In this document: one piece after another, positions 19,291 to 25,133 of the stretch
Position numbering within the stretch: position 1 is the stretch's first letter
How the letters are laid out: every line of letters starts with the position of its first letter
Source of the DNA: Bergeyella sp.
GTDB taxonomy: Bacteria; Bacteroidota; Bacteroidia; Flavobacteriales; Weeksellaceae
NCBI GenBank assembly: GCA_030263285.1
Contig: SZYB01000003.1
Location: 1 to 64,000, forward strand
DNA length: 64,000 nt
Direction: 5' to 3'
Translations under genes and position numbers: made by a program
The notes under the pieces: generated by a model
Told to the model about the DNA's origin: nothing
What the model saw: only the letters and a program-made list of their open reading frames with translations
Database searches by the model: none

Positions 19291-20232
19291 TTATAAATCT
19301 TCAATTTTGGTTTTGTCATATTCTTTCAGAAGTTGGGCAAAAACTTCTTCTACCGAAAGCACCTTGTCTATAAGTGAGGATACTTGACCAATTTCAAGCT
19401 CTCCATGCTCCAGGTCTCCCAGGAACATTCCTTTTTTTGCTTTGCCTCTTCCCAGGGCTTCTTTCAGTTTTTCTAGGCTTCTTTCTTTTCGGTATATTTC
19501 TTCTATAGAATAAAAAAAATTATTTTTCACCAGTCTTACAGGGGCGAGTTCCTTCAGAGTGAGAAGGGTATCCCCTTCCTTCAGTTCTGTAATCCTGTTT
19601 TTCCATGAAATATGGGCACTTGATTCGTGCGTAGCGGCGAATCTTGTTCCCATTTGCACTCCCTCTGCCCCCAGAGCCATTGCTGCCTTTATTTGACTGC
19701 CCAGAGCTATGCCACCTGCCGCTATAAGGGGTAGGTTAACAGTCTTTCTTACCTCTGGCAAGAGACAAAATGTGGTGGTTTCTTCCCTTCCGTTATGTCC
19801 ACCTGCTTCAAAGCCTTCTGCCACCACAGCTTCTACACCCGCTTCTTGACATTTAATTGCAAACTTTGCCGAAGACACTACATGGGCTACAGTTAAACCT
19901 TCTTTTTTTAGATATTCCGTATAGGGTTTGGGGTTTCCCGCAGAGGTGAAAATGATTTTTACTCCTCCCGTAATAATCACTTGCAATAATTCTTCTAGGT
20001 CAGGATAGAGCATGGGAACATTGACTCCAAAAGGTTTATCCGTAGCTTTTTTACACTTTTGTATATGTTCTTTTAGTACATCGGGGTACATGCTCCCGGC
20101 GCCGATAAGCCCTAGTCCACCGGTATTTGAGACAGCCGATGCCAATCTCCAACCCGAATGCCATACCATGCCCCCCTGGATAATAGGATATTGGATTCCA
20201 AAAAGTTGACAAACTCTGTTTTTATCTTTCAT
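19291..20232 (-). CDS. FMN-dependent nitronate monooxygenase / FabK-like enoyl reductase
   Basis: The 313-residue TIM-barrel flavoprotein of the NMO/FabK family begins with FGIQYPIIQGGMVWHSG. Next come SNTGGLGLIGAGS, PFGVNVPML, the FMN-phosphate loop LIAAGGIALG and GAEGVQMGTRFAATHES. VAEGFEAGGHNG contains the H and G residues common to both branches. Family members either oxidise nitronates (detoxification) or, as FabK, reduce enoyl-ACP in fatty acid synthesis; sequence alone does not separate these. It lies about 100 bases downstream of bioA in the same direction, so it could be the last gene of the biotin unit, in which case an acyl-chain role would be attractive. A terminator between them is not obvious. 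Confidence 0.85.
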   Translation of the reverse strand: MKDKNRVCQLFGIQYPIIQGGMVWHSGWRLASAVSNTGGLGLIGAGSMYPDVLKEHIQKCKKATDKPFGVNVPMLYPDLEELLQVIITGGVKIIFTSAGNPKPYTEYLKKEGLTVAHVVSSAKFAIKCQEAGVEAVVAEGFEAGGHNGREETTTFCLLPEVRKTVNLPLIAAGGIALGSQIKAAMALGAEGVQMGTRFAATHESSAHISWKNRITELKEGDTLLTLKELAPVRLVKNNFFYSIEEIYRKERSLEKLKEALGRGKAKKGMFLGDLEHGELEIGQVSSLIDKVLSVEEVFAQLLKEYDKTKIEDL

Positions 20233-20331: not shown

Positions 20332-21609
20332 TTATTCAAAATCATTCAAAACCTCTATGGTATTGTCATAGACAAAGCGGAGTTCATCTTTTGTAGTACA
20401 GTAGGGCGGAACCAAATACAATACATTGCCTAAGGGACGCGTGAGGATACCCTTTCGTAAAAAAGCATCGTATACCCTTCTCCCAACTTCATTGAAATAG
20501 GATGTCTTATTTTCCGTTTTCAATTCCCAAGCCAGAATGGTTCCTGTTTGTCGGACACATTGGACAAGGGGGTGTTTTTCCAGTGTTTTTGCAAAACTTT
20601 CGTGCTCTTTGACGATCTGTCGGATGGACTGTTGGGTTTCTTCTTTCAACAAAAGTTCTAAACTTGCCAGTGCGGCGGTACAAGCAAGAGGATTTGCCGT
20701 AAAAGAATGTCCGTGAAACAGGGTTTTGTATTTATCGTCGGATAAAAACGCCTGGTATATTTCATCCGAGCATGTGGTGATCCCCAAAGGCATTGTCCCG
20801 CCGGTGAGACCTTTTGAAAAACACATGATATCCGGTTGTTCAGCAAGATATTGGGTAGCAAAAAGTTTTCCTGTTCTTCCAAATCCCGTGAATATTTCGT
20901 CCTGAATCATCACAATTTTTTTTTCTCTACAGAATTTCATCAGTTCACTGAGAGGTTCCGGTGGGTACATGAGCATTCCCGCAGCTCCTTGCACGAGAGG
21001 TTCATAAATAAAACAAGCTATTTCATCGGCAAAATGGTCAATTTGTGACTTTAGATTTTCTAGGTTCTGCGTACTGGGGGTATCGATAAAAGTAACATCA
21101 AACAGCATATCCCCGAAAGGTTGTGTCCAGATGCTTCTGCCACTTACAGCCATTGCACCAAAGGTATCTCCATGATAGGCGTTTTTAAGGGCAAGAACCC
21201 TACTTTTTTTTGTCCCTCTATTGTAGGCGTATTGTATACACATTTTGAGCGCAACTTCTACCGCGGTAGAGCCATTATCAGAATAAAAAACTTTCTGTTG
21301 TTTTTCGGGCAACAGATTTAATAGATTTTCAGAAAGCTTTATAGCCGGTTCGTGCGTGAAGCCCGCAAAAATCACCTGCTCTAGAGTATTCAGCTGTTCA
21401 CCAACCCGCTGGGCAATATAAGGATGCGCGTGACCATGCAGCGTAACCCACCACGAGGAAACGGCATCTATGTATTTTTTCCCCGTTTCATCGTAGAGGT
21501 ATACTCCTTTCCCTTTTACTATGGGGAGAGCATCCCCGGCGGTTTTCATCTGGGTATAAGGATGCCAGTTAACAGCTCTGTCTCTTCTTTTTAGTTCATC
21601 ATTCATCAC
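20332..21609 (-). CDS. bioA: Adenosylmethionine--8-amino-7-oxononanoate aminotransferase
   Basis: PLP enzyme converting KAPA to diaminopelargonate in biotin synthesis. Signatures: WHPYTQMK at the N-terminus, YIDAVSSWWVTLHGHAHP, YSDNGSTAVEVALKM, KNAYHGDTFGAMAV, and the PLP Asp in MIQDEIFTGFGRTGK followed by the Schiff-base lysine in CFSKGLTGGTMPLG. WWV is typical of BioA rather than other class III aminotransferases. The 425 residues are normal. It follows bioB after 13 bases and is the last of the tightly packed biotin genes. Confidence 0.97.
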   Translation of the reverse strand: MMNDELKRRDRAVNWHPYTQMKTAGDALPIVKGKGVYLYDETGKKYIDAVSSWWVTLHGHAHPYIAQRVGEQLNTLEQVIFAGFTHEPAIKLSENLLNLLPEKQQKVFYSDNGSTAVEVALKMCIQYAYNRGTKKSRVLALKNAYHGDTFGAMAVSGRSIWTQPFGDMLFDVTFIDTPSTQNLENLKSQIDHFADEIACFIYEPLVQGAAGMLMYPPEPLSELMKFCREKKIVMIQDEIFTGFGRTGKLFATQYLAEQPDIMCFSKGLTGGTMPLGITTCSDEIYQAFLSDDKYKTLFHGHSFTANPLACTAALASLELLLKEETQQSIRQIVKEHESFAKTLEKHPLVQCVRQTGTILAWELKTENKTSYFNEVGRRVYDAFLRKGILTRPLGNVLYLVPPYCTTKDELRFVYDNTIEVLNDFE

Positions 21610-21622
21610 AGGCAGAACAAAG

Positions 21623-22657
21623 TTAACCCATTTCGGAAATGGTTTTGGCGTAATTGCTGTTTTTTCGGTTCCCCGAAGTTTCTGCCTTTGAGCCCTGCAT
21701 AGGTTTAAGTCCTAGAGTATTGAGCATTTGAATGTCTTCGGAAATTCCGGGGTTTGGTGTAACGAGCAGAGTTTCCCTCTCTCCGGTAAAAATAGAATTG
21801 GCTCCAGCCATAAAACACCATGCCTGTTCTGATTCTGTCATTTCGATTCTACCGGCACTCAGACGTACCATAGAAGAGGGAAGAACGATTCTGGCAGTGG
21901 CTATCATTCTTACCATTTCCCAAGCTTCTACTTTTGGATTGTCCTCTAATGGAGTCCCTTTAACCCTCGCTAACGCATTGATGGGTACCGACTCTGGGTG
22001 TTTTGACATGGTTGCCAGGGTAAGAAGCATAGAGATGCGGTCCTGGTGCGTCTCTCCCAGCCCGATGATTCCCCCTGAGCATACTGTAATCCCTGCTTTT
22101 CTCACATTATTTATCGTATTGATCCGATGATCGAAAGTACGGGTAGAGATAATTTCTTCGTAATATTCTTCCGAAGTATCCATATTATGGTTGTAAGCAT
22201 ACAGACCTGCTTCTTGCAGTCGTTGCGCTTGTGCTTCGGTTAGCATCCCTAAGGTACAGCAAACTTCCATGCCCAGAGCATTTACACCTTTTACCATGTC
22301 AATCACGCGGTCAAAGTCCCGATTATCCCGGACTTCACGCCATGCAGCAGCCATACAAAACCTTGAAGCCCCTGCCTCCTTTGCTTTTTGCGCATGTTCA
22401 ATCACTTTTTCTGTAGGCAGTAAGGCCTGCACTTCGATGTCTGTATGGTAACGCGCCGCCTGTCCGCAATAGGAACAATCTTCCGGACATCCTCCTGTTT
22501 TTATGGATAATAAGGTAGAAATCTGGACTTCTGATGGGTCATGCCATTCTCGGTGAACATTCGCTGCTTTATAAACAAGTTCCAACAAAGGCAGGTTATA
22601 AATTTCCTCTATTTCTTCTTTGGTCCAGTCGTGTCTTATCTGTGATTTTTTACTCAT
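21623..22657 (-). CDS. bioB: Biotin synthase
   Basis: Radical-SAM enzyme that inserts sulphur into dethiobiotin. The 4Fe-4S cluster cysteines are C57, C61 and C64 in [12 protein letters not shown]. The auxiliary 2Fe-2S ligands lie in [11 protein letters not shown] and VCCTLGML, with the remaining cysteine/arginine ligand region around [19 protein letters not shown] is the conserved substrate-binding block. 344 residues, typical. One base separates it from bioD. Confidence 0.98.
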
Positions 22658-22658
22658 T

Positions 22659-23273
22659 TTATAAATATTTTAAATCATTTGTGACGATCTTGATTTTTTC
22701 TTTTGTCTTTGATTCCATGTGGGGAATGTTAATAATCTTGGTGCCTTTTTCTGTGTGGTGTCTGATGATCTTTTCTGTAGCAACAGGAAAAGAACCGTTG
22801 AAGACTACGTACTCCAAGTTTAACCCTTTATTTTTGAGCGCTGTCATCGACAGCAAGGTATGATTTATACAGCCCAAATAATTTTTAACAACCAAGACTA
22901 CCGGAAACTGTAGTTTTACCATCAAATCTATCATCAATTCGTTAGGAGAGAGTGGAACCATAAGACCTCCCGCACCTTCCACAATTAGTGGTCTTGTAGT
23001 TTTGGGAGAATGAATATCGTGAACCCTTATTGATATCCCTTCCTCTGCGGCTGATTGGTGGGGAGAAGCCGCCAATTTCAACCGGAATGATTCTTCATGG
23101 CAGTGTATGCTTGTGTCTGTCAATTTTTTAACCTTCATGCTATCGGTATCATGTAAATCTCCCGATTGTATAGGCTTCCAGTAATCTGCCTGAAAATACT
23201 GTACCAAGATGGCCGAACAGATTGTTTTTCCCACCCCGGTTCCTATACCAGTTACGAACAGCTTTTTTTGCAT
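22659..23273 (-). CDS. bioD: Dethiobiotin synthetase
   Basis: ATP-dependent carboxylase closing the ureido ring of dethiobiotin. P-loop GIGTGVGKT at residues 8-16, the substrate-binding YWKPIQSG, and [11 protein letters not shown] are all present. 204 residues, slightly shorter than E. coli BioD but complete. It is separated by one base from both bioF and bioB, so translation is probably coupled. Confidence 0.96.
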
Positions 23274-24402: not shown

Positions 24403-25008
24403 TTATGCTGTTTCTCCTGCAATAGAAGTAATCCATTGGTCGTGCAATTCCTGTTCTGTCTTCATAACGTGATCTGCATGTGATTTCCAATCTTCCGAAA
24501 AATTGTTCAGTTGGCCGATCATTTCTTCCAGATGTCCTTCTTCTTCCAGAATAATAGACTTTACCATTATCTTGGAAGCCGCTTTTGTGAGAATATTCTG
24601 ATAGACAGGATAAAGTTCGTCCGCCCGCATCTCTATTGCATAGGTGACAAATAGGTAGGCAGCATATTTAAGCCCTTCTCCGGCCAGGTTAAGTGTGTTT
24701 TTCAAATACTTGCAGGTGCGGATATCCAAAGCATGCAGATATTGTCTTGTAGCCACGGGAGCCAGCAATTCATTTTCTTGGTAGGTTTTGCACCAATCGG
24801 GATGGATTTTCCCTATTTGTTTTTTCAGATAATGGGCGTGTCTGTGTTCTTCAGCAGCGTGCTTTAGCTGTATTTGAGTCACCTGAGTGGGGTGCTCGCA
24901 AGCAGAGATTTTTCTCGCCCCCGCATTTTCCATGAAAGAAAGCGTGTTGAGCCACTTGGCATGAAGTACATCGTTCTTTACAATATTTTCTAGTAAAGGG
25001 TAAAACAT
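24403..25008 (-). CDS. Ferritin-like diiron protein, first gene of the biotin operon
   Basis: I do not recognise a named family. The 201-residue protein is predicted to be all-helical, and its acidic and histidine residues fall exactly as in ferritin-like diiron carboxylate proteins: E27, then E54-x-x-H57 (AAEEHRHA), then E126 (YAIEMRADE), then E156-x-x-H159 (LEEEGHLEE). Spacing within each helix pair (27 and 30 residues) also fits. There is no signal peptide or membrane segment. The stop is three bases before bioF, and bioF, bioD, bioB and bioA follow without gaps, so it belongs to the biotin unit. No bioC, bioH, bioI or bioW is in the cluster. I infer an oxygen-dependent step supplying or trimming the pimeloyl precursor; a storage or redox role is an alternative. 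Confidence 0.85.
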   Translation of the reverse strand: MFYPLLENIVKNDVLHAKWLNTLSFMENAGARKISACEHPTQVTQIQLKHAAEEHRHAHYLKKQIGKIHPDWCKTYQENELLAPVATRQYLHALDIRTCKYLKNTLNLAGEGLKYAAYLFVTYAIEMRADELYPVYQNILTKAASKIMVKSIILEEEGHLEEMIGQLNNFSEDWKSHADHVMKTEQELHDQWITSIAGETA

Positions 25009-25028
25009 AGCTCGGTATTTTTTTGCTA

Positions 25029-25036
25029 CAAAGGTA
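25029..25036 (-). promoter_or_regulatory. Candidate -7 element for the biotin operon
   Basis: Minus-strand TACCTTTG fits TAnnTTTG, 20 bases before the first gene. A second match (TACATTTG, 25117 to 25110) lies further upstream. No clear biotin-repressor operator was recognised. Confidence 0.4.
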
Positions 25037-25133
25037 ATGTATCTTCCCGCTACCTCGTAAGAATGAAACCTGAAAATAGAGAGATATTTTTTTGCTAAGA
25101 CAGCTAGATCAAATGTATCTGGGTAAGATCAAT

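What the first reader, a model, noticed from the sequence alone, without database searches (positions are those of the whole stretch)
24403..25008. Diiron-like protein encoded as the first gene of the biotin operon
The 201-residue product carries E27, E54xxH57, E126 and E156xxH159, the six-ligand pattern and spacing of ferritin-like diiron oxidases. It starts the unit (diiron protein, bioF, bioD, bioB, bioA) with gaps of one to thirteen bases. Known pimeloyl-supply genes (bioC, bioH, bioI, bioW) are absent from the cluster. Oxygen-dependent C-C or C-O chemistry on an acyl-ACP to make the pimeloyl group (as the P450 BioI does) is an attractive idea and would be a new route. Context and ligands are seen; the reaction is inference.
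Basis: partly seen in the sequence, partly recalled or inferred. Interest (0 to 1): 0.78.

Follow-up and report, generated by a model that had tools for sequence, protein, structure and literature searches.

The report
BioE diiron enzyme heads biotin operon

Summary
No Pfam or NCBIfam model recognises the protein, but it matches BioE, the diiron oxygenase of Elizabethkingia, Chryseobacterium and Chlamydia reported in 2025 (PMC12915131; first described in PNAS 2025, cited there). All six reported EmBioE iron ligands (E26, E53, H56, E125, E155, H158) fall on E27, E54, H57, E126, E156, H159, a constant +1 shift, and 16 of 17 functional residues named for EmBioE are identical. Identity to Chryseobacterium bioE is 70-78%. 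BioE cleaves long-chain acyl-ACP/CoA between C7 and C8, using O2, to give pimeloyl-ACP/CoA. The genome (1.68 Mb, 99.99% complete) has no BioC or BioH over cut-off, no BioW, no P450 (so no BioI) and no BioY, so BioE is the only pimeloyl source recognised. New here: BioL, adjacent to bioE in 80 of 80 relatives, is absent; no GntR-domain protein reaches Pfam's cut-off anywhere in the genome, and the operator-like sequence is gone. Interpretation supported, but not new. Interest about 0.2.

The parts
24403..25008 (-). bioE: ferritin-like diiron oxygenase, 201 aa, ligands E27, E54, H57, E126, E156, H159
   Evidence: PMC12915131
23275..24399 (-). bioF: 8-amino-7-oxononanoate synthase (TTG start as listed; ATG two codons downstream is possible)
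   Evidence: TIGR00858 281 bits (below its 426-bit cut-off); 45-67% identical to bioF at the same place in relatives
22659..23273 (-). bioD: dethiobiotin synthase
   Evidence: TIGR00347 over cut-off
21623..22657 (-). bioB: biotin synthase (radical SAM)
   Evidence: TIGR00433 over cut-off
20332..21609 (-). bioA: adenosylmethionine-8-amino-7-oxononanoate transaminase
   Evidence: TIGR00508 over cut-off
25009..25133 (-). 125-base region upstream of bioE, presumably holding the promoter; lacks the CCGGACTATC / ACTGGCAC sequences found upstream of bioE in most Chryseobacterium; no bioL next to it

Best explanation
The gene is bioE. Its product is a ferritin-like diiron oxygenase that binds a long-chain acyl group carried on ACP (and probably CoA), activates O2 at a two-iron site held by E27, E54, H57, E126, E156 and H159, and breaks the C7-C8 bond to leave pimeloyl-ACP/CoA, which BioF, BioA, BioD and BioB of the same operon turn into biotin. 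Shown here: orthology, ligands, fold, operon, absence of other recognised pimeloyl routes in the genome. Shown elsewhere for close relatives: the reaction. Inferred: that this protein does the same; that it accepts acyl-CoA as well as acyl-ACP (it has the Elizabethkingia-type residues R32, K33, R88, Q89, H92, not the Chlamydia-type K, K, K, Y, D); that the operon is no longer controlled by BioL in this genome.
For: Constant +1 register with the six EmBioE ligands, and 16/17 EmBioE functional residues identical. 70-78% identity over essentially the full length to bioE of 80 loci, nearly all Chryseobacterium and including C. indologenes (72-73%), a species in which BioE's repressor was deleted experimentally. 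About 62-65% to the genus I take to be Elizabethkingia, whose BioE has exactly the published EmBioE numbering. All 80 loci have bioE-bioF-bioD-bioB in this order, 79 also bioA. AlphaFold2 model pLDDT 89.8; best structural matches are aldehyde-deformylating oxygenase variants (Z 16.4, rmsd 2.5, 174 aligned) and tRNA hydroxylase MiaE (Z 16.1, rmsd 2.4, 170 aligned), both ferritin-like diiron oxygenases. In the 99.99% complete genome: BioC best 49.8 bits against cut-off 184.95, BioW none (34), P450 none (35), BioH best 57 against 207 (36), BioY none (51), a biotin/lipoate ligase-family gene present (63). In 296 Bacteroidota genomes no genome has both BioE and a strong BioC (11 and 93 genomes).
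Against: No activity measured for this protein. One listed EmBioE residue (K46) is Q47 here, but it is Q in all 80 relatives and in the presumed Elizabethkingia sequences too, so it does not separate this protein from BioE. No Pfam/NCBIfam/PDB sequence match confirms the family. Atomic distances between the six ligands in the model could not be measured with these tools. Absence of BioL is surprising given that deleting bioL makes Elizabethkingia a biotin auxotroph.
Confidence: 0.95

Rival explanations
1. The protein is a MiaE-type tRNA hydroxylase that happens to sit in the bio operon.
For: MiaE is among the best structural matches (Z 16.1, rmsd 2.4, 170 aligned) and has a similar length.
Against: Only 15% identity to MiaE in that superposition; no MiaE family match in Pfam or NCBIfam; 62-78% identity and residue-by-residue match to BioE; linkage to bioF in all 80 related loci.
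Confidence: 0.01
2. An aldehyde-deformylating-oxygenase-like or fatty-acid-decarboxylating enzyme that makes hydrocarbons or another product, with pimeloyl made elsewhere.
For: Closest folds are ADO variants.
Against: About 13-14% identity to ADO; no other recognised pimeloyl route in the genome; the tested relatives make pimeloyl (PMC12915131).
Confidence: 0.02
3. A BioE that is present but has drifted out of use, as expected in a shrinking genome that lost the regulator.
For: BioL absent and genome only 1.68 Mb.
Against: All ligands and lipid-pocket residues kept, intact reading frames for all five genes, tight operon, no BioY uptake gene.
Confidence: 0.03

Closest known systems
BioE of Elizabethkingia meningoseptica (EmBioE) and Chryseobacterium
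   Same: Six ligands at the same spacing (+1 register), 16/17 named functional residues, about 62-65% identity to the presumed Elizabethkingia and 70-78% to Chryseobacterium orthologues, bioE-F-D-B-A linkage, no BioC/BioH needed
   Different: No BioL gene or conserved operator-like sequence; E-F-D-B-A is one unit with gaps of at most 13 bases, whereas the paper treats bioEFD and bioBA as separate BioL-repressed units
BioE of Chlamydia psittaci (CpBioE)
   Same: Six ligands (-14 register), most stearate-pocket residues, also without BioL
   Different: CpBioE is monomeric and acyl-ACP-only; at the carrier-binding face the window protein has R32, R88, Q89, H92 where CpBioE has K46, K102, Y103, D106
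BioI (cytochrome P450) of Bacillus subtilis
   Different: Haem enzyme, unrelated fold; no P450 in this genome
Cyanobacterial aldehyde-deformylating oxygenase (ADO) and MiaE
   Same: Ferritin-like diiron fold (Z 14-16)
   Different: About 13-15% identity, other substrates and reactions

Membership tests
BioE (diiron oxygenase of biotin synthesis) | Six iron ligands at the EmBioE positions and spacing | tested here: met
   all six at constant +1; invariant in 81 sequences
BioE (diiron oxygenase of biotin synthesis) | >40% identity over >85% of the length to known BioE (criterion of PMC12915131, where EmBioE was the template) | tested here: met
   72-73% to C. indologenes bioE over about 200/201 residues; about 62-65% to presumed Elizabethkingia (genus inferred)
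BioE (diiron oxygenase of biotin synthesis) | Hydrophobic acyl pocket and carrier-binding residues | tested here: met
   EmBioE lipid residues 4/4, CoA-face residues 6/7; CpBioE pocket 9/11 at fixed register
BioE (diiron oxygenase of biotin synthesis) | Ferritin-like diiron fold | tested here: met
   model pLDDT 89.8, ADO/MiaE Z about 16; distances between ligands not measured
BioE (diiron oxygenase of biotin synthesis) | Linked to bioF/D/B/A, other pimeloyl routes absent | tested here: met
BioE (diiron oxygenase of biotin synthesis) | Makes pimeloyl-ACP/CoA from long-chain acyl-ACP/CoA and rescues E. coli bioC/bioH mutants | not testable with these tools
   Shown for EmBioE and CpBioE in PMC12915131
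BioE-BioL module | MocR-type repressor BioL near bioE or elsewhere in the genome | tested here: not met
   only a 22% match to the aminotransferase domain (class I/II aminotransferase); no GntR domain over the cut-off in the genome; no BioL in the locus, present in 80/80 relatives
MiaE tRNA hydroxylase | Sequence match to the MiaE family | tested here: not met
   No MiaE model in Pfam or NCBIfam scans; fold shared only
BioC/BioH, BioI/BioW routes | Genes in the genome | tested here: not met

The most novel reading that the evidence does not exclude
This genome is a natural bioL-minus state carrying an Elizabethkingia-type BioE (the form that is harmful when unregulated), so either its BioE has lower or narrower activity or another control has replaced BioL.
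Probability: 0.45. Interest if true: 0.35.

Novelty: new member of a known kind. Interest (0 to 1): 0.2.

Why it matters
The remaining value is small but testable: outside Chlamydia, a BioE operon without BioL and its operator-like sequence asks how unregulated BioE is tolerated, since deleting bioL in Elizabethkingia causes biotin auxotrophy. Pfam and NCBIfam do not recognise the family yet, so many BioE genes are probably annotated only as hypothetical.

Tried and rejected
Pfam, NCBIfam and PDB sequence searches gave only weak ferritin/rubrerythrin-like scores. Viral contigs and plasmids hold no relative. The original PNAS paper is not in the held library, so its content is taken from the follow-up paper. 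A Chlamydia BioE sequence could not be fetched; comparison with it uses residues listed in the paper. Foldseek alone gave no match with E below 0.001; the VIA-align second look gave the useful ranking. Searches for the conserved Chryseobacterium upstream words found them in the window no more often than chance, and none upstream of bioE. The MiaE idea was considered and rejected because of low identity and no family match.

Full report
OBSERVATION. The ORF at 24403-25008 is real but lies on the minus strand; read on the plus strand it has five stops. It encodes 201 residues from an ATG. E27, E54xxH57, E126 and E156xxH159 are present. Going down the minus strand the order is this gene, bioF, bioD, bioB, bioA. 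bioD, bioB and bioA score over their NCBIfam equivalog cut-offs; bioF has TIGR00858 as its best family (281 bits, under the 426-bit cut-off), and the bioF model PRK05937 is second.

FAMILY. Pfam and NCBIfam hold no model that matches, and no solved structure is related by sequence. A literature search for biotin, diiron and pimeloyl found PMC12915131 (Adv Sci, Dec 2025), on BioE, a diiron oxygenase. That paper attributes the discovery to Xu et al., PNAS 2025, 122, e2501226122 (reference 37; the PNAS paper is not held). As reported there, BioE cleaves C7-C8 of long-chain acyl-ACP/CoA to pimeloyl-ACP/CoA, needs O2 and reductant, carries about two irons, gives undecanoic acid as co-product from C18-ACP, rescues E. 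coli bioC/bioH mutants, and loses function when any of the six ligands is changed. The desaturation-hydroxylation-cleavage sequence is that paper's hypothesis, not shown.

ORTHOLOGY TEST. The published EmBioE ligands E26, E53, H56, E125, E155, H158 map to window E27, E54, H57, E126, E156, H159 with a constant shift of one. Of 17 EmBioE residues named as ligand, lipid-pocket or CoA-face, 16 are identical; the exception K46 is Q47 here. Position 47 is Q in all 80 relatives and in the presumed Elizabethkingia sequences, so the difference is not peculiar to the window. With CpBioE at a fixed shift of 14, all six ligands and 9 of 11 pocket residues match. A scan of genome contigs found 462 relatives; the best 80, nearly all Chryseobacterium with a few other Bacteroidota, are 70-78% identical. 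Two handles coincide with named contigs by length (G277 = C. defluvii, G012 = C. cheonjiense), so the window's family is that of Chryseobacterium (Weeksellaceae). Genus g161 (genomes mostly 4.0-4.4 Mb) has a BioE of 209 aa with exactly the EmBioE numbering; I take it to be Elizabethkingia, which is an inference. All six ligands are invariant in 81 sequences.

STRUCTURE. The AlphaFold2 model (11-sequence alignment) has mean pLDDT 89.8 and pTM 0.87, all helical, with the ligands on the expected helices (E27 in 13-36, E54/H57 in 45-68, E126 in 110-142, E156/H159 at the 150-170 pair). VIA-align ranks ADO variants (Z 16.4, rmsd 2.5, 174 aligned) and MiaE (Z 16.1, rmsd 2.4, 170 aligned) first; helical bundles can reach about 13 without relationship, so the margin is moderate. 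Ligand distances could not be measured.

GENOME CONTEXT. The genome is 1,682,202 bases in 30 contigs, 99.99% complete. BioC: best 49.8 bits against a cut-off of 184.95, which also makes the BioC-dependent esterases (BioH, BioG, BioJ, BioK, BioV) irrelevant as a route. BioH: 57 against 207. BioW: none. P450: none. BioY: none. A biotin/lipoate ligase-family gene is present. BioZ was not searched for. Among the same 296 Bacteroidota genomes, 11 have BioE and 93 a strong BioC, none both; about 3.5 shared would be expected if independent, but the genomes are related, so this is weak support. Within the family 146 of 296 sampled genomes have bioE, in 8 of 33 genera.

WHAT DIFFERS. In 80 of 80 related loci, and in the presumed Elizabethkingia, a divergent MocR-type gene (BioL) sits next to bioE. 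The window has none: upstream of bioE is a 125-base gap and a SurA/PpiC-type gene. Genome-wide, C. indologenes BioL finds only a 22% match to a class I/II aminotransferase, and no GntR domain reaches Pfam's cut-off. The words CCGGACTATC and ACTGGCAC occur upstream of bioE in 60 and 70 of 80 relatives; none of the 25 commonest upstream 8-mers occurs in the window's upstream region, and relaxed searches find only chance-level matches elsewhere. That these words are the BioL operator is an inference. The operon is also compacted: bioB-bioA is 13 bases here, median 161 in relatives. Since deleting bioL makes Elizabethkingia a biotin auxotroph, this genome is a natural counter-example comparable to Chlamydia, though its carrier-face residues are of the Elizabethkingia type (R32, K33, R88, Q89, H92).

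VERDICT. This is a new member of a known kind; the absence of BioL is a minor new point.

Noticed in passing
window 25009-25133 and whole genome G000: The repressor BioL and the conserved operator-like sequence found with bioE in Chryseobacterium are missing; no GntR-domain protein reaches the Pfam cut-off in the 1.68 Mb genome.
   Followed up: partly
L139 and L140 (genus g159): Two further Weeksellaceae genomes have bioE-F-D-B-A without BioL in the fetched stretch; whether BioL lies elsewhere was not tested.
   Followed up: no
L142 and L144: In two more distant Bacteroidota bioE is not at the head of an E-F-D-B-A unit: in L142 it faces a bioF-like gene on the opposite strand, in L144 it follows bioA.
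   Followed up: no
G302:C1:249473-249709: A 1.6 Mb, 83% complete family member has only a 79-residue bioE-like piece (54% identity, open frame 123 aa), perhaps a decaying or cut gene.
   Followed up: no
window 19291-20232 (-): The gene after bioA is related to FabK-type enoyl-ACP reductase (TIGR03151, below cut-off); it is not next to the bio operon in the relatives' loci, so a functional link is doubtful.
   Followed up: partly
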